Source: Faecalibacterium sp. I4-3-84 (GTDB lineage Bacteria > Bacillota > Clostridia > Oscillospirales > Ruminococcaceae). Taken from it: a DNA stretch of 64,000 nucleotides. Positions within the stretch are counted from its first letter, which is position 1. Every line of letters begins with the position of its first letter. Shown piece after piece: positions 47,101-61,386 of this stretch. A program made the position numbers and the translations under genes. The stretch covers positions 2,542,001-2,606,000 of the forward strand of contig NZ_CP094466.1 in NCBI RefSeq assembly GCF_023347255.1, given 5' to 3'. The notes beneath the pieces were generated by a model. That model had not been told where the DNA came from. It searched no databases and saw only the letters and a list, made by a program, of their open reading frames with translations.

Positions 47101-47963
47101 TGTCCAAGACGGTTCAAAACATGGAGATGACCGACGAGGCCCGGAAAGCGGCACAGGATACCATCAAGGCCTACTGTGATGCAATCCGCTCCATGACCGG
47201 CGAGGCTGGGAGCGCAGCGGAGGCCGTTGCGAGCGCAGCCGCCTCCCACCTGAAAACTGCGCCGACAACGACGCCAACCACCACGACAGTCTCCGGTCAC
47301 GCGAACGGCACTCTGTCCGCACAGGAGGACGTCTACATCGCCGGTGAGGAGGGCCCCGAGCTTATCATCGGCGCGCGTGGGTCCGAGGTGTTCCCCACGC
47401 AGGAGACCGAAAGAATCCTCGCAGCCGTGAACAGCGCGGAAAACGCCACGAACGCCCCGGACGACACCGCGCCGGAGCCGGAGCTGCCCACGGACGTTCC
47501 TGCAACGCCGTTCGCGGCTGCTACACTCCCGGAGCCCACGGCAAGCCCGCTCCCGGAGAACGACCTGCCGGAGGGTATGGAGGCCGTCAAGGAGTATTCC
47601 TATCTCACGGCTGACGGGCAGGGCTCTGATGCGCAGCCCACCGGCATTGAGTACATCGAACCGGAGGTGCAGGCGCAGACTACGGAGGAGGCCGCACCCG
47701 CAGAGGAGGCCCCGGTCAACACGACTGCCCCGGCCGCCAGCGACACGCAGCAGGAGGTCCCGGCCTCCTCCTCGGACGCGCCCAGCATTGGCGAGACCGT
47801 CAAGCGCATTATCATCGAAATCAACGGCAGCGGCTCCATCGACGTCGGCGGCATGAATGAGGAATCCGTCCTCGACATTCTGACGCGCCATGCAAAGCCG
47901 GTCCTTATGAGCATCATCAAGGGCGAAATCTTCGAGGAAGGAGACCTTGCCTATGATTTTTGA
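44139..47963 (+). CDS. Tape measure protein
   Basis: 1274 residues. An N-terminal coiled coil is followed by a TP901-type core (about 170-420, AAAQFETSTAMVATIADTSQ) and two hydrophobic stretches (about 480-560). Long coiled coils (about 590-1020) follow, then a Pro/Glu-rich C-terminus with AGEEGPELIIGARGSEVF. It sets tail length and may help DNA pass the membrane. AGGAGG precedes the ATG. Confidence 0.93.
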   Translation: MATLKVVFKAIDEISSKFNEMTQSGERALEAFENTGTAADGALSKVSRTAAQTAKSTDAAADSVDDLSSAIGDYEKATGQAANSTGVLSEKTTETEKNLDEAAEAARKASDEVEKFGDKSEETGKQSEESSKKSRDGIKELQGVLASAGIAATLNEIKNGFFDCSEAAAQFETSTAMVATIADTSQKSLSSISKEVRSYSNETGEAASDMAEATYQAISASINTADAAAFAGTATKLAVGGFTSATTAVDVLTTAINAYGLAASDATQLSDYLITTQNLGKTSVDQLAQSVGKVIPLASAYNVQMDNLSSAYAVLTANGIATAESGTYLKSMLNELGDTGSGVSEVLLNSTGKTFAQLMEQGYSLGDVMAMLGNAVDGDSTAFNALWNSTEAGIGALSLFNAGADKYNSVLESMRTSAGATEKAYSTMADTTDKSKQRMENAFNNLKISVGDVLNPALTQVYEGFTNVFAGMSDFVDEHPAVVAAISAIAVGVGGFTGALAAYNLATTAAKFVTEAFTATLAANPYVLAAAGIVAVTAAAVTLTGVLITQSDEYEGMTATCRDQYDELQRLNDQYNAACEQYGENSDAANSLRYQLDQLNDEFETNRQTVKEFVAECDGLVESHNKVMDAYNSSTSSIKDQELGTLALTQRLGELASQNTQTTASYTEMKAIIDQLNADVPGLGLTYDGVTESVDATVEAIKKAAKAQADSEYKAEQQQTYVDLLKEQSSLEQQISEAEANLDAERQRRGMRQDDVTGDWVSGSGFWMEDSPWVAWTSDIDDYKKSLEELQAAYDENQQTLSDIEGEWRGVAQAVEDSQNQTVSYEEAVSATVSTAQTELDNLTAAYDKAYESARTSIEGQIGLFDTMKTSSELSISDMEKAMQSQTDYLNLYSENLKKAAEYGLDDGLIKSLSDGSEESAGYINAIIQNIEKLGGSTEGMPAAASKFVTEFNSKFEETEKAKDTFADNVAKMETDFDEKMGEIETRMSKTVQNMEMTDEARKAAQDTIKAYCDAIRSMTGEAGSAAEAVASAAASHLKTAPTTTPTTTTVSGHANGTLSAQEDVYIAGEEGPELIIGARGSEVFPTQETERILAAVNSAENATNAPDDTAPEPELPTDVPATPFAAATLPEPTASPLPENDLPEGMEAVKEYSYLTADGQGSDAQPTGIEYIEPEVQAQTTEEAAPAEEAPVNTTAPAASDTQQEVPASSSDAPSIGETVKRIIIEINGSGSIDVGGMNEESVLDILTRHAKPVLMSIIKGEIFEEGDLAYDF

Positions 47964-48615
47964 GAGCAGTATGCAGCTCTGGATTACGCACAACGGAGAG
48001 CGCGAGAAACTGCGCTTTCCCGTTCTGCCGACGAAGTTCGACGTCACTCACGGGACGAAGAACACGAGTGTCACCATCAGTGGCCTCGGCGAAATCCTCG
48101 TTTTGCAGGACCGGGCGGCCGTGGAGGTATCGTGGGACAGCTTTTTTCCGGCCGCGTATTTTCCGGGCATCCAGACGCCATTTATGCTGTCGTCGCCGGA
48201 TGCGATGATACAGCGGCTTTTCGAGTGGAAAATCAGCGCGAAGCCGGTGCACCTCATTCTGACCGGAACGCGCGTAAACTTCTACGCGGCTATCCAGAGC
48301 TTGCAGCCTTACAGAAAAGGCGGCGACCCCGGGAGCATCTACTACAAAATCAAGCTCAAGGAGTACAGAGAGGTCAGAATCCGGCAGGTCAAAGTCAGCT
48401 CGACCGGAACCGCGACCGTCTCCGGCGGCTCCACCCGGACAGACAACCGAGTGCAGGCGAAAACCTACACGGTCAAGCCCGGAGACTGCCTCTACAACAT
48501 CTCGAAATCGACCCTCGGCGACGGAGGCCGGTACAACGAAATCTATTCCCTGAATAAGGATAAGCTCAAAAACCCGAATTTGATTTATCCCGGACAGGTG
48601 TTGCAGCTCCCGTGA
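47953..48615 (+). CDS. Baseplate hub/tail protein with LysM domain (XkdP-like)
   Basis: 220 residues from ATG 47953. The N-terminal half is a tail hub-like domain (RFPVLPTKFDVTHGTKN). Residues about 170-220 are a LysM domain (KTYTVKPGDCLYNISKSTL ... LIYPGQVLQLP), which binds peptidoglycan. It overlaps the tape measure gene by 11 bases. Confidence 0.85.
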   Translation: MIFESSMQLWITHNGEREKLRFPVLPTKFDVTHGTKNTSVTISGLGEILVLQDRAAVEVSWDSFFPAAYFPGIQTPFMLSSPDAMIQRLFEWKISAKPVHLILTGTRVNFYAAIQSLQPYRKGGDPGSIYYKIKLKEYREVRIRQVKVSSTGTATVSGGSTRTDNRVQAKTYTVKPGDCLYNISKSTLGDGGRYNEIYSLNKDKLKNPNLIYPGQVLQLP

Positions 48616-48624
48616 GGTGAGGCA

Positions 48625-49845
48625 ATGGGCAAGATTACATTCCTCGTCACAAAAGGCGAGACCACCTACGACATGAGCGAGCTGGTGGAGAGCGCGACAT
48701 GGAGCGGCCGAAAGGGCTCCCCGGCGCGCACTCTTTCCGTATCGCTTATCGACGATGACGGCTGGAAACACGCCCGTTCCGGCATTGATGTCACCAAGGG
48801 AAACCACTGTGTTTTTTATTGGGAGGGCGCAGAGCTGTTTCGCGGCATCATCATGCAGCAGAAGCAGAGTACGAAAAAGACCATGACCATCAAGGCCTAC
48901 GACGTGGGTATCTACCTGTCGAACAACAAAGACAGCTTTTGCTACAAGCAGAAAAAGGCGTCCGAAATCTTCAAGGACTGCTGCGACCGATTCCAGATTC
49001 CGTACAAGGATGTGGCTGACACCGGCTACGTCATCTCGGAGCTGCCAAAGGCCAAAACGACAGCCTACGATGTCATTCTGGACGCCTTGAGCCTCACGTT
49101 TAAGGCCACCGGCATCAGGCATTATGTGACGTCAGCCGACGGGAAACTGAGCTTGATAAAGCGGAAAGACAGCATTCTGCAATGGGTGGTGGAAACCGGC
49201 CGGAACCTTATAAGCTACGACTACACTTGCAGCATCGAGAAAGTGAAAACCCGCATAAAGCTGCTGTCTAAGGAGGACAAAGTGCTCGCCGAAAAGGCGG
49301 ACACGGAGCTCGAAAAGACCATTGGCATCATGCAGGACATTTCCACGCCCGACAGCAACACCGAGGAGGCGAACCTCACGGACATGGCTGAATCCATGCT
49401 CGCAGAGCAGAAGCTCCCCAGCAAAACGCTGACAATCGAGGGCCTCGGGCAGGCAAACGTCATTTCCGGCGTCGGCCTGTGCATCATCATCAGGCCGCTC
49501 GGCATCTCGAACAGCTACTATGTAGACGAGGATACCCACACATTCAAGGGCAACTACCATTCGATGCGCCTTACCTTGAACATGGCAACAGACACCGAGC
49601 GGAGCGCAAAGGCGAGCGATGAAAAGAGCTCGACCTCGCACTCCGTCGGCGATAAGGTCCAATTTTCGGGCGGCCCTCAGTACGTGGCGTCCACCGCGAC
49701 GTCTCCGACCAACAGCCCGAAAGCGGGACCGGCGAAAATCACCGCCATCGCCAAGAGCAAGAACGCAAAACACCCGTACCACATCATCCACACGGACAAG
49801 CAGAGCACCGTCTATGGATGGGTGGACGCCAGTCAAATTGGATAG
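48625..49845 (+). CDS. Baseplate hub protein (XkdQ-like)
   Basis: 406 residues. The gp27/gpD-like hub fold spans most of the length (GRKGSPARTLSVSLIDDDGW, AYDVGIYLSNNKDSFCY). The C-terminal 60 residues look like an SH3-type module (YHIIHTDKQSTVYGWVDA). It follows the LysM protein as in PBSX. Confidence 0.85.
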   Translation: MGKITFLVTKGETTYDMSELVESATWSGRKGSPARTLSVSLIDDDGWKHARSGIDVTKGNHCVFYWEGAELFRGIIMQQKQSTKKTMTIKAYDVGIYLSNNKDSFCYKQKKASEIFKDCCDRFQIPYKDVADTGYVISELPKAKTTAYDVILDALSLTFKATGIRHYVTSADGKLSLIKRKDSILQWVVETGRNLISYDYTCSIEKVKTRIKLLSKEDKVLAEKADTELEKTIGIMQDISTPDSNTEEANLTDMAESMLAEQKLPSKTLTIEGLGQANVISGVGLCIIIRPLGISNSYYVDEDTHTFKGNYHSMRLTLNMATDTERSAKASDEKSSTSHSVGDKVQFSGGPQYVASTATSPTNSPKAGPAKITAIAKSKNAKHPYHIIHTDKQSTVYGWVDASQIG

Positions 49846-49857
49846 GAGGAGCTGCAC

Positions 49858-50376
49858 ATGAACCCGGATGAAGCGACGAGCCTAAAGCAACTCTTCCTCT
49901 CCATGCTGCCGAAAGACGGCGGCATCGTTGTCGGCACGGTCACGAAAGAGAGCCCGCTCACCATCCAGATAGAGAACGACGAAAAGCTTGAAATCTCTGG
50001 CAGCGCGCTCCTCGTCCCCCGGAACCTGACCGACTATCAAGTGAAAGTAGACATCGCCCTCGCGGACGGCAAAATCGACAGCAACACCCATGTGGGAGGC
50101 GCGCACGGCCACAAGTTTCAGTTGTTCGATTCCAGAGGCGGAGGAGTGACCGGCATCGTCGGCTGCCCTTTCGAGGGTGCAAAAGACGAGCCCAATGGAG
50201 ACTATCACAAGGTCGAGAGCAGCAAGGAGAGCTCACACATCCACTCGCTGAAAACCTTTTCCATCGAGAGCGGTCTGCTGACCGTTTACAATGCGCTCAA
50301 GACGGGCGAATCTGTCTACCTTCTCCGCTTCAACGACGGTAAGAGCTACTACGCTCTTGAGAGGGCTATCGTATGA
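49858..50376 (+). CDS. Baseplate protein, DUF2577-like (XkdR)
   Basis: 172 residues. An OB-like N-terminal part (VGTVTKESPLTIQIEND) and the GGAHGHKFQLFDSRGGG segment fit the DUF2577 spike/hub group. AGGAGG precedes the ATG, and its end overlaps the next gene by 4 bases. Confidence 0.75.
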   Translation: MNPDEATSLKQLFLSMLPKDGGIVVGTVTKESPLTIQIENDEKLEISGSALLVPRNLTDYQVKVDIALADGKIDSNTHVGGAHGHKFQLFDSRGGGVTGIVGCPFEGAKDEPNGDYHKVESSKESSHIHSLKTFSIESGLLTVYNALKTGESVYLLRFNDGKSYYALERAIV

Positions 50377-50780
50377 GCAGAGTATTTGTTCCCATTCCCA
50401 TTTCCGGCATCGAGGAGGAGAAAGAGCAGCCGTCGCTCACCTACAAGCTCGACCTCGATACCGGGCGCATCGTCGGAAAGGTTGACGGCCTCGAAGCCGT
50501 CAACCAGTTTATTTTGAAAGCACTCATCACTCCGCGTTTCCACTGCCTCGTCTACGACAACCAGTACGGCAGCGAAATCAAGGACACTGTCACGGACGAG
50601 AGCGCGACAGAGGAGCTTATCAGGGCGGAAATCCCGAGACTTGTGGAGGATGCACTCCTCTGCGACGGCCGGATTCTTAAAGTCTATGACTTTGAGTTTG
50701 AGTTCAACGAGGATTCCTGCAACGTCCACTTCACGGCGGACACTATTTACGGGACCACAGAGGTCGAGGAGGTGATATAG
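50373..50780 (+). CDS. Baseplate wedge protein, DUF2634-like (XkdS; gp25-type)
   Basis: 135 residues. LDTGRIVGKVDGLEAVNQFI and FHCLVYDNQYGSEI are typical of XkdS, related to the gp25 lysozyme-like wedge component. It is placed right before the J protein gene. Confidence 0.85.
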   Translation: MSRVFVPIPISGIEEEKEQPSLTYKLDLDTGRIVGKVDGLEAVNQFILKALITPRFHCLVYDNQYGSEIKDTVTDESATEELIRAEIPRLVEDALLCDGRILKVYDFEFEFNEDSCNVHFTADTIYGTTEVEEVI

Positions 50781-50781
50781 A

Positions 50782-51861
50782 GTGTTTGAAGCCCAGACCT
50801 ACGACAAGGTTTTGGAGGAGATTTTGAGCCGCGCGCCGGACGGAATCGACCTCCGGCAGGGCAGCATCTTCTACGATGCTGTCGCAGGCATCGCTTTCAA
50901 AATCGCCAAATACTATGCAGACCTCGAACAGGTGTTCGAGATGGTGTTTCTGGTGACGGCGACCGGCGATTACCTGACGCTCAAGGCAGAGGAATACGCC
51001 GTTTACCGGCAGGCGGCCGCGACGGCAAAGTACCGCATCAAGTACGACGGGGAGCTCCCGGAGCTCGGGACGCGCTTCTTCTGCAGCGGCCAGTATTTTG
51101 TGCTGGCGCAGGATGACGCCCTCGGCATCTACATCGAGGCAGAGAAAGCCGGAACAGAGGCGAACGACATTCCGGCCGGAACCTCTGTTGTGCCGACCGA
51201 CACGCAGCGGAGCCTCACAGCCTGTTCCATCGTCGAGGAACTCGAACCGGGCGCAGACGACGAGGACGACGAGAGCCTCCGAAAGCGTGTACAGGAGAAA
51301 ATCGCCGGACCGGCAGAAAACGGAAACCAGCAGCATTACAAAACGTGGTGCGAGAGCATCTCCGGCGTCGGCCGTGCGCGCATTGTTCCCCTTTGGGCGG
51401 GAGAGAACACGGTCAAAGGCGTTCTCATTGACACGGAGGGCGGCCCGGCATCTGATGCTGTTGTGCAGCGCGTACAGGAGTACATCGACCCGGGCGGGAC
51501 CGGCCTTGGCGAGGGACAGGCCAACATCGGCGCGCACTTCACCGCGACATCCGCCACGGCGAAAAGGGTCAACATCTCTTTCTCCGTGACGCTTGCAAAG
51601 GGAGGAGACCTCGCCAGCGTCAGGAGCGCAGCGCAGACGGCCCTCAAAGCTCAAATCAAGAGCATCAACCTCACCACGGACGACAGCGAAACGCCCACCC
51701 TGCGCATCAGCACGGTCGGCAACACGATTTACAGCCTCTTGGGAGTGCTGGACTACGCAAACCTCCGCTTCAACGGCCAGACGGCAAACGTCGAGGCCGG
51801 AAAAGAGGAGGTATTTGTTTTGGGGGAGGTGACAGTAAGTGAAACCAACCCTGTATCCTAA
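50782..51861 (+). CDS. Baseplate J-like protein (XkdT)
   Basis: 359 residues from GTG 50782. The pattern KYRIKYDGELPELGTRFF and the RIVPLWAGENTVKGVLID region match baseplate J/gp47 family proteins, which connect the hub to the fibres. Confidence 0.88.
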   Translation: MFEAQTYDKVLEEILSRAPDGIDLRQGSIFYDAVAGIAFKIAKYYADLEQVFEMVFLVTATGDYLTLKAEEYAVYRQAAATAKYRIKYDGELPELGTRFFCSGQYFVLAQDDALGIYIEAEKAGTEANDIPAGTSVVPTDTQRSLTACSIVEELEPGADDEDDESLRKRVQEKIAGPAENGNQQHYKTWCESISGVGRARIVPLWAGENTVKGVLIDTEGGPASDAVVQRVQEYIDPGGTGLGEGQANIGAHFTATSATAKRVNISFSVTLAKGGDLASVRSAAQTALKAQIKSINLTTDDSETPTLRISTVGNTIYSLLGVLDYANLRFNGQTANVEAGKEEVFVLGEVTVSETNPVS

Positions 51862-52843
51862 CGGATTCCCCAGCGCATACGAGGAGCTGAAAACATTCTA
51901 CCCGGTGTTCTACCGGGACGTTTTCGAGATGGACGCTATCTGGCGCGCAGCCGGAGGCGGGCTGGACGAAATCGAGGACGGCGTGGACGCTGTTGTCAAC
52001 AACAACTTCGTATCCCTGATGGACACGGATGCGCTGGCGCAGATGGAAACCTTCCTCGGCATCCCTTTGAACCAGAAGCGCACCCTCGAGGCGCGGCGCA
52101 AGCTCGTCGCCTCGTACTTCATCGGCGGCAACCACATCGGCGCGCGAGAAATCAAGGACATCACCCGGGCCTTTACAGAGGGCACTTGTGAGGTCTCTTT
52201 TGTAGGCGGAACGGTCTATATCCATGTGAAGTCCGACATCAAGGACACGCCACCGGAGGATGACTATTACTACATCCTGCGAAAGAAGATACCCGCGCAC
52301 CTCGGCGTATACACCAACATCGAAATCGAGTTCTCGGAGCGGCTCTATGTTGGCTCGAACGCACTCGAGGGCAACCGGTACGACATCGTACCCCCGCCAC
52401 CTGTCGGCCAAAGCGCAGCCGGAGAGCTGCACACCGGCAGCTATATCATGCAGAGCGGCAGGACTGGCATCGACCTGCATCCGCAGCCCGGCCTCTCGTT
52501 TGAGACCGGGCTCCACGCAGCGGCCGTCGTCCTCGAATCGAGCAAAACGGCCGTTGACCTGCCTGCACCGGAGCGGCGCAGCGCGCAGAACGCGCTCCAC
52601 GCCCGCACAGGCATGGTTGAGAGTAGCCGAACGGCCGCAGACATGATTCTGTATAGCGGCTGGGAGGACAGCGCAGAGAGCACCGTAAGGACCGGCGCGG
52701 CCTATGCGCAGACCACGCTCGTCACTATCGCCCCGGCATTTCAGCAGGAGTGCGCGGCCGCAGCATACACGGCCCGGACCGGCTGCGGCGTCATCGAGAA
52801 CACACACTACATTGTGCAGACAGCACAGAAAGGGAGTATCTAA
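51839..52843 (+). CDS. Tail protein XkdU/DUF2313-like
   Basis: 334 residues from GTG 51839 (GGGAGGTG upstream). Residues 1-190 match YmfQ/XkdU tail proteins (METFLGIPLNQKRTLEARRK). The C-terminal 140 residues consist of five or so repeats around LHAxxxxxESSxTAxDL, probably a short adaptor for the fibre encoded next. Confidence 0.8.
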   Translation: MKPTLYPNGFPSAYEELKTFYPVFYRDVFEMDAIWRAAGGGLDEIEDGVDAVVNNNFVSLMDTDALAQMETFLGIPLNQKRTLEARRKLVASYFIGGNHIGAREIKDITRAFTEGTCEVSFVGGTVYIHVKSDIKDTPPEDDYYYILRKKIPAHLGVYTNIEIEFSERLYVGSNALEGNRYDIVPPPPVGQSAAGELHTGSYIMQSGRTGIDLHPQPGLSFETGLHAAAVVLESSKTAVDLPAPERRSAQNALHARTGMVESSRTAADMILYSGWEDSAESTVRTGAAYAQTTLVTIAPAFQQECAAAAYTARTGCGVIENTHYIVQTAQKGSI

Positions 52844-54694
52844 ATGGACGGTTCTATCACCACCAACAAAGGCATTGCCCTTATCGGCAAACTGCTGGCG
52901 CAGAAAGGCGCATTGCAGATTACCCGCGTAGCAGTCGGCGACGGCACTCCTCCTGCATCCCCAGCAACGCTCAACGCCCTCGTGCATGAGCTGAAAAACG
53001 CCACCATCGAGAGCGTGGACAACCCGAAGAACGGCGAGGCGAAAATCGTCGTCACCGTTTCCAGCATCGGCGTGACGCAGGGCTTTTTCGTCAAGGAAAT
53101 CGGCGTCTTTGCAAAGGACACCGACGGCAAAGAGATTCTGTACGCCTACGCGGGATTCTCCGACAATCCGCAGTGGATTCGCCCCGAGGGCACGGCCATC
53201 ACCAACGTGGCGACCTACGACATCAACACCATCATCGACCGCGTTTCCGAGGTCAAGGTCACTATCGACCCGTCGAGCCTCGCCACTAAGGCAGACCTCA
53301 CCAAGCTGGACGACCGTATTTCCGCACTGGAACGCAAAGAGCACGTCAAAATCTACGGCGTCCGCTGGCCCAAGGGCGCGAGCGCAAGCAAGGGCGAGCG
53401 CATCTACGACAGCGTAGGCATGACGGCGGAGGCTGGTGTTGGCAGCCAGACCGTCACCAACGACTTCGACAAGGCTTACCCGTTCGCAGGCCGTCGCCGC
53501 TGCAACGGCTACCGCGACGCAGACCGCACGTTCCATGTCACTGCATACGAGGGTGAGCCGGGCTACACCACAAACGACCCGGCAAAGCTGGTGTATGTCG
53601 AGACGCCGGAGTTTTATTACTTCGACGGCATTGACGGCGACTATGAGGTCATGGCCGTTTCTACCTACCCGGTCCCGGGCTTTGAGTTTATGCCCCGCAC
53701 CTACTCCGCCGCCTACCTCGTCGCTATGGAGGGCGAGACCGACAGCAAGAAGCCCACGAGCCGGAGCGGCGTATTCAGCGACTACAACAGCCTGAACGGA
53801 TGGGCGACCGACATCAAGAAGCTGGGCTCCCAGTACACCGGTATGCTGGCGGTCGATAACTACATCGACGGTCTGCTGATGATGGTTGAGTTTGGCACGA
53901 AAGACGTGCAGACTGTCATCATGGGCGCAAGCACCCTGCCGTATTCTGATTCTCATGTTGCGCTGGCAGCAGAGGACAGCGCGAACCGCATCCTCATTAC
54001 GAAAGCGCAGGCAGCAGACTACGTCGTCGGCCAGACTATCAGCCTGTCCAAGAGCAACATTTGGAGCGATGAAGTTGCCAAGAACCGCATCGTTACCAAA
54101 ATCGAGGACAAGAGCACGGACCAGACCTACCTCTACTTCGACGGCGCAGCAGTCAGCGTTGCTGAGGGTTGCCATGTGAGCTCCCGTCCGTGGGTGAACG
54201 GCGCAGCCGATGTTGTGGCGGCCAGCTCCGGCTCCACTGTGGACAACACGAGCGGCAAATACCCCTTTATCTACCGTGGCAAGGAGAACCCCTATGCAAA
54301 CGCATGGGTCAATGTGGCGGACCTGTTACATGTCAGAGAGGGAACAGAGGGCAATTACAAGTACCACATGGCCTATCTGCCCGACCCCACCAAATACGCA
54401 GGAGGCACGGTATCGTCCGATTATGTGCAGCTCGACTTCGAGATGCCCGGGCAGGACGGCTATGTCAAGGAGCTTGGCAAAGACCCGCGCTATCCTTTTA
54501 TCCGCGTAACCAAGACAATCGGCGGCAGCTCCTCCACCTATTACGCTGACTATTACTGGTACGGACGCAACGCGGTCAACGCGGTGCTTGCTGGCGGCAA
54601 CCTCAATGCTGGCCGGTACTACGGCCCCCGTTGCTTCAACTGCTACAATGCCCCGTCGTACTCGGACTGGTACCGCCGCGCGCGTCTTTCTTAA
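52844..54694 (+). CDS. Tail-collar fibre protein, DGR target with variable C-terminus
   Basis: 616 residues. Residues 1-150 are a phage tail-collar fibre domain (NKGIALIGKLLAQKGALQIT, GFFVKEIGVFAKD) that attaches to the baseplate. A linker (about 150-170) and a large C-terminal domain follow. The last 38 residues lie within the variable repeat and end RRARLS, in the C-type-lectin-like style of DGR targets. Eight codons there differ from the template repeat. The protein should bind the cell-surface receptor, and its tip is the part that is diversified. Confidence 0.9.
   Translation: MDGSITTNKGIALIGKLLAQKGALQITRVAVGDGTPPASPATLNALVHELKNATIESVDNPKNGEAKIVVTVSSIGVTQGFFVKEIGVFAKDTDGKEILYAYAGFSDNPQWIRPEGTAITNVATYDINTIIDRVSEVKVTIDPSSLATKADLTKLDDRISALERKEHVKIYGVRWPKGASASKGERIYDSVGMTAEAGVGSQTVTNDFDKAYPFAGRRRCNGYRDADRTFHVTAYEGEPGYTTNDPAKLVYVETPEFYYFDGIDGDYEVMAVSTYPVPGFEFMPRTYSAAYLVAMEGETDSKKPTSRSGVFSDYNSLNGWATDIKKLGSQYTGMLAVDNYIDGLLMMVEFGTKDVQTVIMGASTLPYSDSHVALAAEDSANRILITKAQAADYVVGQTISLSKSNIWSDEVAKNRIVTKIEDKSTDQTYLYFDGAAVSVAEGCHVSSRPWVNGAADVVAASSGSTVDNTSGKYPFIYRGKENPYANAWVNVADLLHVREGTEGNYKYHMAYLPDPTKYAGGTVSSDYVQLDFEMPGQDGYVKELGKDPRYPFIRVTKTIGGSSSTYYADYYWYGRNAVNAVLAGGNLNAGRYYGPRCFNCYNAPSYSDWYRRARLS
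54580..54692 (+). repeat. DGR variable repeat (VR)
   Basis: 113 bp, co-linear with TR at +215. Eight differences, each at a TR adenine: VR 54587 C, 54609 C, 54617 T, 54633 G, 54644 T, 54659 T, 54665 G, 54671 T. It ends in a 12-base all-G/C run (54673-54684) followed by an identical TCTTTCTT, as at DGR initiation sites. The fibre stop codon is just beyond. Confidence 0.95.
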
Positions 54695-54715
54695 AATACC
54701 TGACAGCAGGGGATT

Positions 54716-54732
54716 GGGGGCGGCCAGCCCCC
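54716..54732 (+). other. Hairpin downstream of VR (DGR homing hairpin and possible attenuator)
   Basis: GGGGGC-ggcca-GCCCCC, 24 bases after VR. A hairpin at this place is a known requirement or enhancer for target recognition in studied DGRs (Bordetella phage BPP-1). A pyrimidine-rich tract follows (54727-54770), so it might also act as a weak terminator before TR. Confidence 0.75.
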
Positions 54733-54759
54733 TTTCTTCTTCTGTCTTTTTCTTTCGCT

Positions 54760-55076
54760 TTTTAACTCCAAACAGGGACTTGGTGTGCTCTGCTCGCGGT
54801 GATTGCTGGCGGCAACCTCAATGATGGCCGGAACTACGGCCCCCGTTACTTCAACTGCAACAATGCCCCGTCGAACTCGAACTGGAACCGCCGCGCGCGT
54901 CTTTCTTTATGCGTTCCCATAAATTATTGCACACCATTTCGCCGCCCTATAGGCAGCCGGACCCGGAGAACGGGCCGCCTTGCCACTCGGCAAAAATACG
55001 CCACATCAGGTGGGAGCTAGTAGGACCGGACAGGCCTCGAAAACCCTCAAGGCTAAAAGAAAGAGGTGAATGCCTG
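54760..55076 (+). ncRNA. DGR RNA: TR plus TR-RT spacer
   Basis: The region from before TR to the proposed RT start carries no good gene. In known DGRs the TR transcript plus about 140 nt of downstream spacer is the template and primer for cDNA synthesis. Here the TR-RT spacer is 169 nt (54908-55076). Ends are approximate because no promoter was recognised. Confidence 0.6.
54795..54907 (+). repeat. DGR template repeat (TR)
   Basis: 113 bp copy of the fibre end. It contains 22 adenines, many in nine AAC/AAT asparagine codons when read in the VR frame, the codon type that gives most amino-acid choices when A is randomised. It differs from VR at 54802, 54824, 54832, 54848, 54859, 54874, 54880 and 54886 only, all A in TR. 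Confidence 0.95.
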
Positions 55077-56177
55077 TTGAAAAGGGCAGGATTCCTGTAT
55101 GAAAAGCTCCTCGACAGAGGACTTATCAGGGACGCCATCATAAAGGCATCACGGAAAAAGCGTCGCCGGAGGTCGGTTAGACGCATCCTGAATAATATCG
55201 ACCATTACGTCGATGAACTCTACACCATGATTGCGAACGAGAGCTTTACGCCCTCACCGTACCGGAGATTCCAAATCAAGGACGGCGCAACGCAAAAGGT
55301 GAGAGAAATTTGTTGCCCGAAATTCTACCCCGACCAAATCGTCCACTGGATGATGATACTCGTTCTCGAACCCGTGTTTATGCGCGGGATGTGCGAAACG
55401 AACTGCGGCAGCGTCCCCGGGCGCGGCGCGCACTACGGAAAGAAGCACATTGAGAAGTGGTACAAGCTGGACAGGAAGAACACAAAATATTGCGCAAAGC
55501 TCGACATCCGAAAATTCTACCCATCGACTAAGGCTCCGGCCGTTATGCAGGAACTGCGGCACGTTATCAAGTGCAAGCGGATGCTGCGGCTGTGTGAGAC
55601 GGTGTTGAACAGCTCGGACGGCCTGCCGATTGGCAATTACACCTCACAGTGGTTTGCGAACTTCCTTCTGCAGCGGCTCGACCATTTCATCAAGGAAGTG
55701 CTCCACATACGGTATTTTGTCCGGTACATGGATGATATGTGTCTCTGGGCATCGAGCAAAAAGCTCCTGCACAGAGCGGTAAAAGCAATCGAGAAGTTTC
55801 TGGCGGGTCTCGGCCTTGTGTTAAAGGCCAACTGGCAGATATTCCCGACGGCTGCCCGTGCGGTGGATTTTCTTGGATTCCGATTCTTCCGCGAGAAAAC
55901 GACCTTGCGAAAGAACCTCGCTCTGCGCTTGAGGCGGAGGGTGAAGAAAACCTACAAGCATACCCAGAAAACAGGCAGAGTGCGAGCGCGGGACGCAGCA
56001 GCGGTTATGAGTTACTGCGGATGGCTGAAACACGCACATTGCCACGGCTTTTTCGTGAAGTACGTTAAGCCGTATGTGAACTTCAAAAAGCTAAAGGAGG
56101 CTATCAGACATGAAGCGAGAATACGCGCACGAACCGCCTATTGTGTCGGTAACGCAGCTCAACCCCGAACAGTGTGA
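55077..56177 (+). CDS. DGR reverse transcriptase
   Basis: 366 residues from TTG 55077. Motifs: catalytic Asp144 in KLDIRKFYPS, the DGR-specific GLPIGNYTSQ (183-192) where group II intron and retroviral enzymes have QG, and YMDD (218-221). It reverse-transcribes TR RNA with errors at adenines. The frame is open back to an ATG at 54909, inside the spacer and 1 base after TR, but only TTG 55077 has a proper ribosome site (GAGGTGA, 7 bases before). The 3' end overlaps the next gene by 68 bases. No Avd partner gene lies beside it. Confidence 0.93.
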   Translation: MKRAGFLYEKLLDRGLIRDAIIKASRKKRRRRSVRRILNNIDHYVDELYTMIANESFTPSPYRRFQIKDGATQKVREICCPKFYPDQIVHWMMILVLEPVFMRGMCETNCGSVPGRGAHYGKKHIEKWYKLDRKNTKYCAKLDIRKFYPSTKAPAVMQELRHVIKCKRMLRLCETVLNSSDGLPIGNYTSQWFANFLLQRLDHFIKEVLHIRYFVRYMDDMCLWASSKKLLHRAVKAIEKFLAGLGLVLKANWQIFPTAARAVDFLGFRFFREKTTLRKNLALRLRRRVKKTYKHTQKTGRVRARDAAAVMSYCGWLKHAHCHGFFVKYVKPYVNFKKLKEAIRHEARIRARTAYCVGNAAQPRTV

Positions 56178-56775
56178 GGTGCTGCTGCACGAGAACATCA
56201 ACGCGGAGACCCGCACCACGACCGGCGCAAACGGCGAGGAGCAGACCACCGTATACACGGCACAGGAGTACACCCTCATCATCCCGTGGCGGGAGGGCAT
56301 TGAGGACAGCATCAAGGCCAACGTCGCCGCATGGACCGAAATGGCCCGCAAGCAGGAGCTCGAAGAGCTGCTGCCTGAAAAGCTGACCGAGCTGGATAAT
56401 GCCTGCCGCAAGGCAATCGTCGAGGGCTGCTGGGTCGAGCTGGCGGACGGCTCCACCCAGCACTTTGCGCTGACGGAGGCAGACCAGATTAACCTCAACG
56501 TCGCACTTGAAGCCGTGAAAGCAGGCGCGGAGGGCTATCCCTATCACGCGGATGGTGAGCTGTGCCGTGTGTTCAGCGCGGCCGACATCAACGCTGTCGC
56601 AGCAGCGGCCGTGGCGCACAAGCTCTACCACACCACCTATTTCAACCACGCGAAGCAGTGGGCCACCCGCGCCAAGACGGCAGACGAGCTTGCCGGTATC
56701 CACTACGGCGCACAGCTCCCGGAGGACCTTGCGGCCAACATGGCAAAGGTCATCGCTAGTGTATCGGGCCAGTAA
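56110..56775 (+). CDS. Tail-associated protein of unknown function
   Basis: 221 residues; AAAGGAGG lies 9 bases before ATG 56110. N-terminal beta-type segment (CEVLLHENINAETRTTTG), a helical middle and a C-terminal domain with LYHTTYFNHAKQWATRA. Its site after the fibre suggests fibre assembly or a small tail component. It is not Avd-like: Avd is a basic four-helix bundle of about 120 residues. Confidence 0.6.
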   Translation: MKREYAHEPPIVSVTQLNPEQCEVLLHENINAETRTTTGANGEEQTTVYTAQEYTLIIPWREGIEDSIKANVAAWTEMARKQELEELLPEKLTELDNACRKAIVEGCWVELADGSTQHFALTEADQINLNVALEAVKAGAEGYPYHADGELCRVFSAADINAVAAAAVAHKLYHTTYFNHAKQWATRAKTADELAGIHYGAQLPEDLAANMAKVIASVSGQ

Positions 56776-57196
56776 GGCAGCCGCGCTGTTCCTGACAGGC
56801 GGCACGGCCTACGCGCTGCTCGAGACGGCATGGCGCGGTCACACGCACTGGACGATGTTCGTCCTCGGCGGATTCCTTTTCCTGATTCTAGGCGAGCTGA
56901 ACGAGGGCTTGCTCGAATGGGATACCCCGCTCATTTTGCAGGGTATCATCGGTTCAGCCATCGTGACAGGAGCGGAGCTCGCAACCGGGATGATTCTCAA
57001 CGTCTGGCTCGGCCTCGGCGTTTGGGATTACTCCGGGATGCCGCTCAACTACAAAGGGCAGATTTGCCTCCCGTTTAGCATCCTGTGGATTTTCGTGTCC
57101 ATCGCGGCCGTCGTCCTCGATGACTGGCTGCGATACTGGCTGTTTGGGGAGGAGCGTCCGCACTACACACTGTTCCGGCGCGGCGAGAGCCGCTGA
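56759..57196 (+). CDS. Multi-pass membrane protein, PF06541-type (CmpB-like)
   Basis: 145 residues with four predicted membrane helices. The pattern GELNEGLLEWDTPLILQGII, then VWDYSGMPLNYKGQICLPFS, is that of the family named 'putative ABC transporter type IV', whose function is unknown. GTG 56759 is chosen (AAAGG upstream) and overlaps the previous gene by 17 bases. In this lysis-side location it could have a holin-like or exclusion role. Confidence 0.7.
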   Translation: MYRASKAAALFLTGGTAYALLETAWRGHTHWTMFVLGGFLFLILGELNEGLLEWDTPLILQGIIGSAIVTGAELATGMILNVWLGLGVWDYSGMPLNYKGQICLPFSILWIFVSIAAVVLDDWLRYWLFGEERPHYTLFRRGESR

Positions 57197-57208
57197 AAGG
57201 AGCCGCCA

Positions 57209-57406
57209 ATGAACCGCGAGGAGAGGCTCGAACAGCTTTTGACGGCCACCGTTAAGCTGCTCGACCGGTGGGAGGAATACTCCCTCGAAACGAACTGCGG
57301 GGAGCCGGAGGGCTACGGAGCAGCCCGCGCGGTGGTACACGCAGAATTTTCCGTACTCAAACAGACCGACAAAGGAGACGTCGAGAATGAGCGTAATTAC
57401 CTTTAA
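57209..57406 (+). CDS. Small phage protein of unknown function
   Basis: 65 residues, AAAGGAG before the ATG. Helical N-terminal half (EERLEQLLTATVKLLDRWEE). It overlaps the endolysin gene by 20 bases. Confidence 0.6.
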   Translation: MNREERLEQLLTATVKLLDRWEEYSLETNCGEPEGYGAARAVVHAEFSVLKQTDKGDVENERNYL

Positions 57407-58046
57407 GCCGAACGACCACACGAAAATCACCACAGACTTCGAGCGGTCCGAGTTTGCCTGCCCGTGCGGATGCACGGCGCAGATGATTGACCCGGAGCTC
57501 GTCCAGAAGATGCAGACCGTCCGCACCAAGCTCGGCAAGGCCATCAAGGTTACGTCGGGCTACCGGTGCGTGAAGCACAACGCAGACCCGAAAGTGGGCG
57601 GCAGCCGGACAAGCCGCCACCTCTACGGCATTGCGGCCGACTGGCGCACGAAGGACCGGAGCGTAAACCCCGTTGCCCTCGGTATCATCGCGGCCGCACA
57701 GGGCTTTGGCGCGGTCGGCATCTACTGGCACGACAAGGCCGCCATTGTCCACACCGACACGCGCGGAGGCAAGGCTACATGGCTTTGCGTCCGGCCCGGC
57801 GTGTATCCCAGCACCACCTACAACAAGTTTGTCCTGCCGACCATCGAGCAGGGCTGCGAGGGAGCCGCTAACCGCGCAGCTACGGTTATGCTGCAGCGGC
57901 TCCTCGGCATCCCGCACGACGGCAGTTTTGGCCCGGCTACCACAAAGGCACTGATGGCGGCCCAGCGTAAGCACGGCCTCACCCCTGATGGCATTTGCGG
58001 CCCCAAGAGCTGGACTGTCCTGTCAGGCGCAGACAAATATCTGTGA
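57387..58046 (+). CDS. Endolysin: M15-type peptidase with peptidoglycan-binding domain
   Basis: 219 residues. Residues 20-140 are a peptidase M15_3 domain with zinc ligands in RHLYGIAADW and VHTD, which cuts peptide cross-links of the wall. Residues about 150-215 form a PG_binding_1 repeat (RLLGIPHDGSFGPATTKAL). There is no signal peptide, so release depends on the holins encoded next. Confidence 0.9.
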   Translation: MSVITFKPNDHTKITTDFERSEFACPCGCTAQMIDPELVQKMQTVRTKLGKAIKVTSGYRCVKHNADPKVGGSRTSRHLYGIAADWRTKDRSVNPVALGIIAAAQGFGAVGIYWHDKAAIVHTDTRGGKATWLCVRPGVYPSTTYNKFVLPTIEQGCEGAANRAATVMLQRLLGIPHDGSFGPATTKALMAAQRKHGLTPDGICGPKSWTVLSGADKYL

Positions 58047-58063
58047 GGGAGGAGGTGATACCC

Positions 58064-58351
58064 ATGTGGGAGTTCATTGTCCAGTATTGGGCGGAGTGGG
58101 CTTTCGGACTGCTTGGCACGGCGATTATCGCCGTAGCCATCAAGTACAAAGCCCTCCTCAACGGCGTACTGGCTATTCTGCACGACCGTATTTATCAGGC
58201 CTGCCAGCACTACATTCAGCAGGGCTACATCGACGCGAGCGGCCTGAAAAATTTGGAGTACCTCTATCGCAGCTACCACACGCTTGGGGGGAACGGGACC
58301 GGGACCGAATTGTACAACCGGGCCAAAGCTCTCCCCATCCACGACAACTGA
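58064..58351 (+). CDS. Holin-like small membrane protein
   Basis: 95 residues from ATG 58064, with GGAGGTGAT 5 bases before it. One hydrophobic segment (about 8-28) and an amphipathic C-terminal part. Location between endolysin and holin supports a lysis role; the family was not recognised. Confidence 0.6.
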   Translation: MWEFIVQYWAEWAFGLLGTAIIAVAIKYKALLNGVLAILHDRIYQACQHYIQQGYIDASGLKNLEYLYRSYHTLGGNGTGTELYNRAKALPIHDN

Positions 58352-58374
58352 TTTTCAACAGAAAGGACAACACT

Positions 58375-58626
58375 ATGAACAACAATCACATCTCCGCTGG
58401 CACCATCGCCCGTACCGCAGCTCTGGCTCTGGCACTGACTAACCAGATTTTGAGCGCAGCGGGCAAGCCCGTCATCCCCATCGACAACGCACAGCTCGAG
58501 CAGTTCATCACCACCGGCTTTACCGTCGGCGCGAGCATCGTGAACTGGTGGTATAACCAGTCCTTCACGCAGGCAGCCATCGAGGGCGATAAGACCTACG
58601 AGAGCGTCAAGAATCAGATTCACTAA
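58375..58626 (+). CDS. Holin, SPP1-type
   Basis: 83 residues. ISAGTIARTAALALALTNQI and VGASIVNWWYNQSFTQAA are typical of the SPP1 holin family, with two membrane-compatible stretches. AGAAAGGA lies before ATG 58375. It is the last gene of the late operon. Confidence 0.85.
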   Translation: MNNNHISAGTIARTAALALALTNQILSAAGKPVIPIDNAQLEQFITTGFTVGASIVNWWYNQSFTQAAIEGDKTYESVKNQIH

Positions 58627-58657
58627 GGACGCCCCAGCAGCTACCACATAACAGCAC

Positions 58658-58706
58658 GAGCCTCCCGGTATACCTCGCACAAGAGGGCCGGGAGGCTCTT
58701 TTTTTA
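58658..58706 (+). terminator. Late operon terminator
   Basis: Perfect 11-bp stem GAGCCTCCCGG (58658-58668) / CCGGGAGGCTC (58688-58698), followed by seven T. Confidence 0.95.
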
Positions 58707-59202
58707 TTGCCGTTTTTTGCAATATCTTCCCCGGAAACGCACTTAAAACAGCATTTCCGGCGCGGTTATTCTCGTAAAAAGACATTTTCGGGACAGAAAT
58801 GCACTTTTTGATACATTTTCTATCATTTCCGTGGATAACCGCAGAAAAACGACGCGGAAATACCAGAATGACCCGAAAAGTGGAAAACTGGGTGGAAAAA
58901 GTTGATAAAAGGGTCATACGAGACAACACACGCAGTTGTCCCAAAATACCACGAAAAACAATATAACCGGAGCGGAAATACCGTTTTGAACGCATATCCG
59001 CGCGGATATGCACTGAAAGCAGCATTTCCGGGTATTTCCGGCGAAACAATCGACAAAGAAGAGTAGAGTAAAGAAGAGTAGAGTAGAGAATATATTATAC
59101 TCCGCGATTTTGCAATCGCTGACGCGAAAGCCGTTGCCATTGCCCCTGTTAGGTGCTATCATAAAAGCACGACTACCAACACAGAACAGGAGGACAACAG
59201 TT
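58707..59202. repeat. Repeat-rich non-coding region, possible replication/partition or control locus
   Basis: About 500 bases without a gene and richer in A/T than the flanks. It holds: a perfect 20-bp palindrome GCATATCCGCGCGGATATGC (58992-59011); two copies of GCACT(t/g)AAA(a/g)CAGCATTTCCGG (near 58738 and 59010); scattered ATTTCCG/CGGAAAT motifs on both strands; two GCGGAAATACC copies (near 58854 and 58974); and a tandem 15-mer AAAGAAGAGTAGAGT (59055-59069, 59070-59084). A further A/T stretch with TATATTATAC follows. Confidence 0.6.
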
Positions 59203-60228
59203 ATGGGTAACACAACTGCGTCCCTCACCCACGAACAACTGTTCGGGGGGGTAACAATCGACGGCGCAGCAGAAATCCAGAGTGAATTGCGCGACCGTAG
59301 GGACAAGAAACCGAGCTCCGAACTGAACTTTGCACCGAGCAAGGCGGGCCGCGTGGCTTGCTTTGATGAAAAGCGGTGCTATATTACAGACGGCGAGCTC
59401 AAGCCGCTTGCCTACTTCGACGCGGATGCTTATATTGCCGCGTGTGGAATATCGGACGACGGCAGCGTGGCTCTTTTTATGACGGCATACGGCCCGAGCG
59501 GAGAGAGCACCATGCTTATTGATACGAACGCCTTTTCGACCATCGCGGCCGGAGATGTTCAGGTGAGTGCAAATACCGTTCGCGGGATAAACGTGGATTC
59601 GACACGAAAAAAATTCACTCTGTTCACCGCAAAGAAGCGGGAGACAGAGTGGAGCGAGAAGCACGGCTTTACATTTTCTCTCGAGCCAACAGTCCCGGCA
59701 GACGAGCCGCAGGAGATTCCGGACTATGGAGCCATGAAAGCGGCAGAGCGCATGGGCATCCCATACGAGGAGTATGCGGCTATCCTGAAAAAGGCAAGGG
59801 ACGAGGTCGAGGGCGACGACGGTTGGGAAAAAGAACTCGACGCAAAGAACAGAGCGAAAGCCGGGATTGATGGCCCGGATGCCGAGACACTGGAACAGAA
59901 CGCCGAGAGGCTGAAACGGTATGAAGAAAAAACAGACTTGTCACCCTACGAGCTGCTCGAAAAGGCTCAAGGCTGCATTTGTGAGCTGAAAGAGACCTAC
60001 ACGGAGCAGGCGGAACAAAAAGCGGTAGACTATTTGAGCCTGTCAGCCCTGAATCCCAAGATGTCCACATACCAGCTCTCCAATGCCTACAAGGAGCTCG
60101 GCCAGATATACGACCAAAACGACCTCAAGCAGAAAGCCCTCGACGCATACCGGGAGGGCCTGCGTCTTAACTCCGGATTGTCCGTGAAGAAACGCATCAA
60201 GCAGCTCGAGAAAGAGCTGAACGCATAA
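59203..60228 (+). CDS. Phage protein with C-terminal TPR-like helices, function unknown
   Basis: 341 residues; AGGAGGA lies 9 bases before ATG 59203. Residues about 35-160 are beta-rich, resembling blades of a propeller (GRVACFDEKRCYITDGELKP, GSVALFMTAYG). Residues about 205-222 (DDGWEKELDAKNRAKAGID) repeat a motif of the phage minor head protein. Residues about 250-341 look like tetratricopeptide helices (YKELGQIYDQNDLKQKALDA). Function unknown. Confidence 0.65.
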   Translation: MGNTTASLTHEQLFGGVTIDGAAEIQSELRDRRDKKPSSELNFAPSKAGRVACFDEKRCYITDGELKPLAYFDADAYIAACGISDDGSVALFMTAYGPSGESTMLIDTNAFSTIAAGDVQVSANTVRGINVDSTRKKFTLFTAKKRETEWSEKHGFTFSLEPTVPADEPQEIPDYGAMKAAERMGIPYEEYAAILKKARDEVEGDDGWEKELDAKNRAKAGIDGPDAETLEQNAERLKRYEEKTDLSPYELLEKAQGCICELKETYTEQAEQKAVDYLSLSALNPKMSTYQLSNAYKELGQIYDQNDLKQKALDAYREGLRLNSGLSVKKRIKQLEKELNA

Positions 60229-60229
60229 A

Positions 60230-60404
60230 ATGACCCAGCAAGTGACGAAAGCCTCCTGCGGAGACCCGCAAAGCGTCGTGGTGGCTAGGCGGCAAACTTT
60301 ACGGCCAGACCACAAAAGCCCGAAATCGAGGCCCCGGAGCCGTGCTCGTGACGTTCTACGGCTCAACGCAGGAGAAAGCACTCCGAAAAGCTACAGGCAA
60401 ATAG
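60230..60404 (+). pseudogene. Possible small gene with apparent +1 frameshift
   Basis: ATG 60230 gives MTQQVTKA; a +1 shift near 60251 leads into a natural-looking sequence KASWWLGGKLYGQTTKARN and GPGAVLVTFYGSTQEKAL, ending at TAG 60404. The unshifted frame (to 60451) is arginine-rich and looks like a shadow. The shifted frame has no start codon of its own. It could be a broken gene or an assembly error. Confidence 0.4.
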
Positions 60405-60447
60405 CCAGCAAGTTAAAATCAGCCTGCGGGAGACGGCCCACAGGGAG

Positions 60448-60582
60448 GTGATGGAGAGGGCTGCACGGGGACCACGAACAGCCCTCCCGTCACACTGGCT
60501 GCTCCGAAATACCCGCAGCAGGAAGAACCACGCGGCGCAAATCCTGTATGCGCGGCAGCGGCTCGACCGCTGGCGGGCATAG
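60448..60582 (+). CDS. Possible small basic protein
   Basis: GTG 60448 / ATG 60451 starts a 43-44 residue basic peptide (ALPSHWLLRNTRSRKNHAAQ ...). The same frame is protein-like further upstream (QQVKISLRETAHREV) but has no start there. The proposed start lies almost on top of its GGGAGG site, so the gene may be longer and damaged. Confidence 0.35.
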   Translation: MMERAARGPRTALPSHWLLRNTRSRKNHAAQILYARQRLDRWRA

Positions 60583-60591
60583 GAGGCAAGC

Positions 60592-60801
60592 ATGGAACAG
60601 TCTATTTATGAGCTCTACATGGAGCAGGTCAACCCGCAGGACACCCGCGAAATCATGCAGGCAGAGGACACGCTCACCGCGCTGCTTAAGCTGGTGGAAA
60701 ACCGCGAATTGCGCGACGCCATCGACCGCGCAGCAGGCCGCGTTGCCTACCTCCGAGAAGTAGCGGCATTTGAGGCCGGTTACGGCTTTATGCCCGAATA
60801 A
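60592..60801 (+). CDS. Small acidic phage protein
   Basis: 69 residues, TAGGAGG just upstream. Helical (LTALLKLVENRELRDAIDRA). It is the last plus-strand gene before the divergent right arm. Function unknown. Confidence 0.6.
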   Translation: MEQSIYELYMEQVNPQDTREIMQAEDTLTALLKLVENRELRDAIDRAAGRVAYLREVAAFEAGYGFMPE

Positions 60802-60802
60802 C

Positions 60803-60835
60803 AAAAAGGGAGGCCCGGCACAACGCCGGGCCTCC
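60803..60835 (-). terminator. Terminator of the right-arm XRE gene
   Basis: GGAGGCCCGGC (60809-60819) / GCCGGGCCTCC (60825-60835). The T-run is on the minus strand (60807-60803), so it mainly ends leftward transcripts; it may also stop the plus-strand operon. Confidence 0.85.
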
Positions 60836-60842
60836 TGATTCA

Positions 60843-61049
60843 TTATAGCCCAAGATAATCCTCAATGCTCATGCCGAGCGCAGCGGCGACGGCATGAATC
60901 TGGTAAACATCGCGCGGGACCCGGCGACCGGCCTCCCAGTCCTCAAGCGTCCGCAGCGAGACACCGGAGAGCTGCGCCAACCGGGTGCGGTTCAGTCCAC
61001 GAGACTCTCGCAGGTAGATTATGCGAGCTGTAAGTGGCATAGACACCAT
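60843..61049 (-). CDS. XRE-family regulator of the right arm
   Basis: 68 residues, a single HTH domain (LNRTRLAQLSGVSLRTLEDWEAGRR) with a short C-terminal helix. ATG 61049 is preferred because AAGGGGG lies 9 bases before it; the frame is open 35 codons further upstream, through a hairpin region. It probably controls this minus-strand unit, perhaps through the palindrome at 61393. Confidence 0.8.
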   Translation of the reverse strand: MVSMPLTARIIYLRESRGLNRTRLAQLSGVSLRTLEDWEAGRRVPRDVYQIHAVAAALGMSIEDYLGL

Positions 61050-61050
61050 C

Positions 61051-61078
61051 TTGAAATCCCCCTTGAATCTGCTATAAT
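61051..61078 (+). promoter_or_regulatory. Promoter of a candidate small RNA
   Basis: TTGAAA (61051-61056), 16-base spacer, TATAAT (61073-61078), reading rightward, opposite to the surrounding genes. The expected start is near 61085. Confidence 0.6.
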
Positions 61079-61084
61079 AGAAAT

Positions 61085-61213
61085 GCCGGAGGAGTGAGGC
61101 ATCTGCAAGCTGTTTCTCGCTCCCCCGGCGTTTCAGAACTCTGGCCGCCGTCATCGGCCTTTGTTCTTCATCGGAGAGCCCTGCTTACTTGTTGAGCAGG
61201 GCTTTTACTTTTT
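61085..61213 (+). ncRNA. Candidate 129-nt structured small RNA
   Basis: It begins with a 14-position stem (61085-61098 with 61116-61129; 12 Watson-Crick pairs, one G-T, one mismatch). It ends with a terminator AGCCCTGCT-9-AGCAGGGCT (61177-61203) followed by TTTACTTTTT. A consensus promoter lies directly before it and no open frame of note is inside. Its 3' end is antisense to the last codons of the 46-residue gene on the minus strand. Confidence 0.5.
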
Positions 61214-61325: not shown

Positions 61326-61357
61326 TTTGTTTCCTTTCTGGCCTTGCCACCTTACTC

Positions 61358-61379: not shown

Positions 61380-61386
61380 TGACTAT

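What the first reader, a model, noticed from the sequence alone, without database searches (positions are those of the whole stretch)
54580..56177. Complete diversity-generating retroelement aimed at the tail-fibre tip
VR and TR are co-linear over 113 bp and differ at 8 positions, all adenines in TR (A to T four times, A to C twice, A to G twice). All change amino acids (I to L, D to A, N to Y four times, Y to C, N to D). An RT with the DGR-type SQ motif follows. The pattern shows past mutagenic homing and implies that the phage can change its receptor specificity.
Basis: partly seen in the sequence, partly recalled or inferred. Interest (0 to 1): 0.9.

Follow-up and report, generated by a model that had tools for sequence, protein, structure and literature searches.

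The report
Phage tail-fibre diversity-generating retroelement
A dormant virus in a bacterial genome carries a known kind of gene-rewriting machine aimed at the tip of its tail fibre, and comparing relatives suggests how its RNA may start the copying without the usual helper protein.

Summary
VR 54580-54692 and TR 54795-54907 are co-linear over 113 bp with 8 mismatches, all at TR adenines (chance about 6e-7). The RT profile matches solved chain 8ub7 (recalled as the Bordetella DGR RT) far better than group II intron or retron RTs. The target's C-terminus matches the DGR variable proteins TaqVP and Mtd. So this is a genuine diversity-generating retroelement (DGR) in a contractile-tailed prophage, a kind already published for Faecalibacterium phages.

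Corrections and additions. The RT probably starts at TTG 55077. The spacer before it holds Rfam RNA RT-18, found in the same place in 39 of 60 related viral loci scanned. No Avd match was found in the genome. In 35 of 37 RT-18 loci the TR 3' end is complementary over at least 7 bp to the RT-18 tail; none of 20,000 random re-pairings scores as high. I infer a clamp that sets an internal primer against TR. VR variation in this phage could not be tested; in three pairs of relatives with identical TRs, 44 of 46 VR differences lie at TR adenines. Receptor switching is inference.

The parts
52844..54694 (+). Target gene: 616-aa tail-collar fibre protein; the variable region is its last ~38 residues
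   Evidence: PF12571 Phage_tail_fib E=1.7e-8; phrog_5302 tail protein 1.4e-47 over residues 14-615; profile matches TaqVP 5vf4 (4.8e-9) and Mtd 1yu4 (0.0018) at their C-termini; model's three best Foldseek PDB matches are TaqVP, E 1.1e-3 to 1.7e-3, TM 0.27/0.41
54580..54692 (+). Variable repeat (VR) at the 3' end of the target gene
   Evidence: 113-bp repeat, 93% identical to TR, all 8 mismatches at TR adenines
54716..54732 (+). GC-rich hairpin (GGGGGC, loop GGCCA, GCCCCC) 23 nt after VR; likely the DGR target hairpin
   Evidence: a GC-rich stem of at least 5 bp within 90 nt of VR was printed for all 22 relatives listed there, without a chance control; role from PMC3240598 (passages)
54795..54907 (+). 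Template repeat (TR)
   Evidence: 22 adenines, none at codon position 3
54900..54908 (+). 5' strand of the inferred clamp helix (last 8 nt of TR plus one)
   Evidence: perfectly complementary to 55056-55064
54981..55062 (+). RT-18 RNA (RF03021), structured spacer RNA
   Evidence: 62.5 bits, gathering score 41.3
55056..55064 (+). 3' strand of the clamp: RT-18 tail, unpaired in the Rfam model, next to the likely RT ribosome-binding site
55077..56177 (+). DGR reverse transcriptase, 366 aa, likely TTG start (open frame reaches up to ATG 54909)
   Evidence: profile match to 8ub7 2.4e-58

Best explanation
It is an Avd-less diversity-generating retroelement of a contractile-tailed prophage. Shown from sequence: a TR/VR pair with A-only differences; an intact RT of the DGR kind; a target whose C-terminus resembles DGR variable proteins; a structured RT-18 RNA between TR and RT; and a complementarity between the TR 3' end and the RT-18 tail that is kept through sequence change in relatives. 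Inferred: one transcript carries TR, RT-18 and the RT message; RT-18 engages the RT; the TR-tail clamp holds a nucleotide at or just 3' of the tail (about 55064-55069) against the GC-rich end of TR as an internal primer; the RT copies TR with errors at adenines; the cDNA replaces VR, whose 3' end is shared with TR and followed by the hairpin. TR stays intact while the tail-fibre tip varies at up to 22 adenines, which would alter receptor binding. The confidence given is for the DGR assignment; for the clamp-primer step see the most novel reading (0.5).
For: A-only mismatches, P 6.2e-7. RT profile of 12 sequences: 8ub7 at 2.4e-58, next a group II intron RT at 2.5e-34. Target: TaqVP and Mtd. A repeat pair just upstream of the RT in 65 of 80 related viral loci. 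Relatives with identical TRs but different VRs: L143/L156 18 of 18 VR differences at TR adenines, L007/L008 13 of 13, L013/L015 13 of 15. RT-18 in the window, 7 of 11 sources, 39 of 60 viral loci. Clamp: 35 of 37 loci with 7 or more Watson-Crick pairs, sum 296 against a maximum of 251 in 20,000 re-pairings; one locus per distinct tail, 18 of 20, 155 against 133, with no signal in the preceding 85 bp; 34 further loci, 24 with 7 or more, 244 against 218. BPP-1: the longest helix, G-U allowed, between the last 20 nt of TR and spacer 21-144 is TR 123-129 with spacer 48-54, two nt before A56, the priming site as I recall it. No PF22296 match at E 0.1 in the whole genome.
Against: No second VR of this phage was available. 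Only 8 of 22 TR adenines differ. The finder tolerates mismatches only at TR adenines, so it shows that pairs exist, not that they are A-biased. RNAalifold on A2 recovers the RT-18 hairpins but not the clamp, and A2's rows were cut at the clamp, so A2 is no independent test of it. The window RNA alone folds no better than shuffles (z -0.56, 52 of 200 as good), although MFE and centroid contain the clamp. L123 and L106 have only 6 pairs. When TR ends were taken from VR homology, 24 of 34 loci reached 7 pairs. The stretch 171-255 bp upstream shows a weak signal too (664 of 20,000 re-pairings as good). In BPP-1 a Watson-Crick-only search for 6 or more pairs found none. Related loci are not independent, which re-pairing only partly removes. 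In one search, 8 of 20 and, 11 of 20 loci had no RT-18 match. Some VR differences are not at TR adenines: 2 of 15 in L013/L015, 4 of 18 in L068/L070, whose TRs also differ at 8 positions. An undescribed helper protein cannot be excluded.
Confidence: 0.95

Rival explanations
1. A decayed DGR: it worked in the past, but it no longer mutates VR, perhaps for lack of Avd.
For: No Avd match; only 8 of 22 adenines differ; L005, the nearest relative, keeps the TR 3' half, spacer and RT but has no VR.
Against: The RT frame is full length with its catalytic motifs; spacer nearly unchanged and RT 99% identical in L005; L143 and L156 have no room for avd between VR, TR and RT, yet their VRs differ at 18 TR adenines with identical TRs. 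Cornuault 2018 (PMC5883640, passages) found Avd in only two of its DGR phages.
Confidence: 0.15
2. The DGR is real and active, but needs an unrecognised small protein in place of Avd, and the TR-tail complementarity serves something else, such as covering the RT ribosome-binding site to balance template RNA against RT translation.
For: The clamp 3' strand lies next to the likely ribosome-binding site; Cornuault 2018 suggested another small protein (passages).
Against: The 5' strand sits at the TR end, where copying has to begin, and the orientation suits a primer; BPP-1 has a comparable helix beside its recalled priming site.
Confidence: 0.3
3. An ordinary duplicated repeat beside a group II intron-like or retron RT, with chance A-bias.
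For: NCBIfam's best RT match is group II intron RT/maturase, 96.9 bits.
Against: That score is far below its cut-off of 300; 8 of 8 mismatches at A, P 6.2e-7; 8ub7 preferred over group II RTs; the same arrangement in many relatives.
Confidence: 0.01

Closest known systems
Bordetella phage BPP-1 DGR (prototype)
   Same: TR/VR pair, VR at the 3' end of a tail receptor-binding gene, spacer of similar length before the RT, a helix between TR end and spacer, hairpin after VR (PMC12875486 and PMC3240598, passages)
   Different: BPP-1 has avd between the target gene and TR; its TR-spacer helix lies mid-spacer (48-54 of 144) and includes a G-U pair, here the helix is at the very end of the spacer; RT-18 is found here
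DGRs of Faecalibacterium phages (Epona, Roos, Pioen, Lelie, Mushu, Lagaffe and others)
   Same: Temperate phages with TR/VR/RT cassettes, several without Avd, some with read evidence of activity (PMC5883640 passages; PMC11792537 abstract and sections 30 and 31)
   Different: No near DNA match of this region in the phage collection; RT 38.5% identical to Epona's, whose RNA before the RT is RT-4, not RT-18
Lactobacillus phage LBR48 RT locus
   Same: Best phage-collection RT match, 44% identity, with RT-18 right before the RT
   Different: TR/VR not examined here; the record starts 821 bp before the RT

Membership tests
Diversity-generating retroelement | TR/VR pair differing at TR adenines | tested here: met
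   8 of 8 mismatches at A
Diversity-generating retroelement | RT of the DGR lineage | tested here: met
   8ub7 2.4e-58 against 2.5e-34 for the best group II RT (that 8ub7 is the Bordetella DGR RT is recalled); no tree was built
Diversity-generating retroelement | VR at the 3' end of a gene with a C-type-lectin-like C-terminus | tested here: met
   VR ends at the stop codon; profile matches TaqVP and Mtd at their C-termini. The model's Foldseek match is modest (TM 0.27/0.41) and the VR part has pLDDT 24-66
Diversity-generating retroelement | Hairpin downstream of VR | tested here: met
   54716-54732, no chance control
Diversity-generating retroelement | Avd accessory protein (present in BPP-1, not in all DGRs) | tested here: not met
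   No PF22296 match in the genome at E 0.1; 0 of 901 ORFs from 37 loci with a three-sequence profile. Not a universal feature (PMC5883640, passages)
Diversity-generating retroelement | VR varies at TR adenines in the population while TR is constant | tested here: inconclusive
   No second VR of this phage; in relatives L143/L156 and L007/L008 met, L013/L015 13 of 15, L068/L070 14 of 18 with TR also differing
Diversity-generating retroelement | Active mutagenic retrohoming | not testable with these tools
   Needs reads or an assay
Rfam RT-18 (RF03021) | Score above the curated gathering threshold over the whole model | tested here: met
   62.5 against 41.3 bits, model positions 1-84

The most novel reading that the evidence does not exclude
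The Rfam RNAs RT-18 and RT-17 (and perhaps RT-3, RT-4 and RT-9) are the spacer half of DGR template RNAs. In the RT-18 class a co-varying clamp between the TR 3' end and the last nucleotides before the RT gene makes the RNA a self-primer, so that mutagenic copying works without Avd. BPP-1's own TR-spacer helix beside its primer adenine would be the same device in another place.
Probability: 0.5. Interest if true: 0.6.

Novelty: new member of a known kind. Interest (0 to 1): 0.4.

Why it matters
The element itself adds one more tail-fibre DGR to phages already known to be rich in them. What may be useful is the comparison: it offers a function for Rfam families named only after their neighbouring RT gene, and a concrete, testable primer position for DGRs without Avd, which could be the simplest ones to reconstitute. 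If right, the TR 3' end can be defined by RNA pairing as well as by VR homology.

Tried and rejected
Near DNA matches of window 50001-59500 in the phage collection: none. Exact and A-masked TR patterns in viral contigs: none, only the L005 contig. Other VRs of this element in the genome: none at E 0.001. Tail-fibre search of viral contigs: one weak locus, L046. RNAalifold does not show the clamp. L137/L144 was dropped as a VR comparison because the two TRs were out of register (89 differences); L016/L017 have identical VRs; L013/L021 gives the same counts as L013/L015. In one search TR ends came from VR homology and 10 of 34 loci gave fewer than 7 pairs; in several the repeat match had stopped early, as shown by the helix then found (for example L097, L086, L096), which searched the 85 bp before RT-18. 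Left out as near copies or repeats: L005 from the clamp tests; L101, L147 and L156. L125 is the same contig as L006, and 8 of those 34 loci were later found to carry RT-18 and 2 RT-17. Twenty of the 80 loci were never scanned against Rfam. Whether Weinberg 2017 (recalled as the source of the RT RNAs; not held) already links them to DGRs is unknown to me; paper searches listed no paper on RT-18 in DGRs, judged from listings of one library only.
Full report
Observation. TR adenines lie only at codon positions 1 and 2 (10 and 12 of 22), so the amino acid changes follow from TR's make-up and are not separate evidence of homing. In the 3,119,411-base genome TR matches only itself and VR at E 0.001.

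Setting. The window is G000:C1:2542001-2606000. It holds, in order, terminase, portal, head protease, another virion protein, tail sheath, tape measure, baseplate J, Mu Gp48-like, tail fibre, DGR and endolysin genes, so it carries a contractile-tailed prophage; its ends were not determined. Faecalibacterium phages are among the matches of the tail fibre (5 of 18 records) and the RT (15 of 142) without being the best, so a Faecalibacterium host is a guess.

Reverse transcriptase. The protein aligns with relatives from TTG 55077 on. The YMDD and GNYTSQ motifs are intact. A profile of 12 sequences (this RT and 11 relatives) finds 8ub7 (recalled as the Bordetella DGR RT complex) at 2.4e-58, then group II intron RTs from 2.5e-34. 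Pfam and PHROGs agree on a reverse transcriptase; PADLOC matches are to RT families in general, and none of the 8 NCBIfam matches reaches its cut-off.

Target. The 616-aa protein has a tail-collar N-terminus. In an AlphaFold2 model (18 sequences, mean pLDDT 73.8, VR part 24-66) the three best PDB matches are chains of TaqVP, a solved DGR variable protein, with E 1.1e-3 to 1.7e-3 (none at or under 0.001) and TM 0.27/0.41. The sequence profile matches only TaqVP (4.8e-9) and Mtd (0.0018) at E 0.01, both at their C-terminal ends. A C-type-lectin-like tip is likely, not proven.

Relatives. A scan with the RT alignment returned the best 80 of 540 related viral stretches. A finder that tolerates mismatches only at TR adenines gave a repeat pair just upstream of the RT in 65 of 80; of the 15 misses, 12 have the RT within 435 bp of a contig end. 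By its rule the finder shows presence, not A-bias. Independent evidence of A-bias comes from relatives with identical TRs: L143/L156 differ at 18 VR positions, all at TR adenines; L007/L008 at 13, all; L013/L015 at 15, of which 13. Two genomes of the host's genus (L068/L070) differ at 18 VR positions, 14 at TR adenines, but their TRs also differ at 8. The nearest relative of this element, L005, lacks window 20280-54846, with the break inside TR, so this phage's own VR variation is untested.

Spacer RNA. Rfam RT-18 matches 54981-55062 with 62.5 bits against a gathering score of 41.3. It lies directly before the RT gene in 7 of 11 sources, 18 of 20, 12 of 20 and 9 of 20. One search gave none in 12 sources but found RT-17, RT-9 and RT-3 once each beside DGR RTs; RT-17 also occurs in L066, L150 and L155. 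LBR48 has RT-18 and Epona RT-4 right before their RTs. An RNAalifold consensus of 35 RT-18 loci has 15 pairs, 13 with changes on both sides.

Clamp. Window 54900-54908 and 55056-55064 are perfectly complementary; in the Rfam model the RT-18 tail is unpaired. In 37 RT-18 loci the longest Watson-Crick helix between the 85 bp before RT-18 and the RT-18 tail has at least 7 pairs in 35; the sum, 296, is above all of 20,000 random re-pairings of strands between loci (maximum 251). With one locus per distinct tail, 18 of 20 pass and 155 exceeds the maximum of 133; the same test on the preceding 85 bp gives 93, reached by 11,448 of 20,000. The stretch 171-255 bp upstream, where the VR end can lie, shows a weaker signal (664 of 20,000). 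In 34 further loci of the clade 24 have 7 or more pairs and the sum is 244 against 218 (caveats under Tried and rejected). Where VR homology defines the TR end, the 5' strand often straddles it. In BPP-1 the longest such helix with G-U allowed is TR 123-129 with spacer 48-54, while a Watson-Crick-only search for 6 or more found none. A56, two nucleotides on, is the priming site as I recall it; PMC12875486 (passages) says only that an internal spacer adenine primes within the TR 3' junction. The orientation suits a primer: a 3' end on the tail strand would be extended into TR. Against this, the window RNA alone is not unusually stable, and RNAalifold misses the helix.

Avd. PF22296 finds nothing in the host genome at E 0.1; among 11 genomes it has matches in two, two each. 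In G003 these are at 1010882 and 1894525, near its RT matches at 1011666-1012724 and 1895483; in G050 (weak, under the cut-off) they are far from its RT-18 DGR at 3617235. A profile of three Avd sequences finds nothing in 901 ORFs of 37 RT-18 loci, for the window only bases 44001-64000. In 34 loci the gaps VR-TR (56-243 nt) and TR-RT-18 (25-81 nt) leave no room for a gene of avd's size (387 bp in BPP-1). Cornuault 2018 (PMC5883640, passages) found Avd only in Mushu and Lagaffe and suggested another small protein elsewhere; an RNA-based solution is an alternative, not shown.

Known or new. DGRs are published as common in Faecalibacterium phages, some with activity in reads (PMC5883640 passages; PMC11792537 abstract and two results sections). 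The element is a new member of that kind. The RT-18 link and the clamp are the part that may be new; four paper searches listed no such paper, but Weinberg 2017 is not held and the papers behind 8ub7 were not read.

Noticed in passing
L072 7842-7963 and 9870-9991 (G000:C1:3090841-3090962 and 3092869-3092990): The host genome carries a second DGR: RT 29% identical, TR/VR run of 122 bp with 16 differences, all at TR adenines by the finder's rule, VR downstream of the RT.
   Followed up: partly
L005 5759-5761: A near-identical viral contig lacks window 20280-54846; the break lies inside TR with a two-base overlap of the BLAST pieces. A defective phage or a mis-assembly.
   Followed up: partly
L080 3609-3725; L057 1309-1478; L056 1343-1458: Rfam RT-4 (Epona), RT-3 and RT-9 lie right before RT genes of DGR-carrying or DGR-like loci, so more of the RT-n families may be DGR spacers.
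   Followed up: no
window 56110-56775: The gene after the RT overlaps its end by 68 bp and matches DUF4376 and a PHROG named tail fiber protein.
   Followed up: no
window 54716-54732: The hairpin after VR recurs in L083, L084, L104 and L115 as GGGGGC, a 5-nt loop ending in CA, GCCCCC, unlike the GRNA loop consensus reported for BPP-1-like phages.
   Followed up: no
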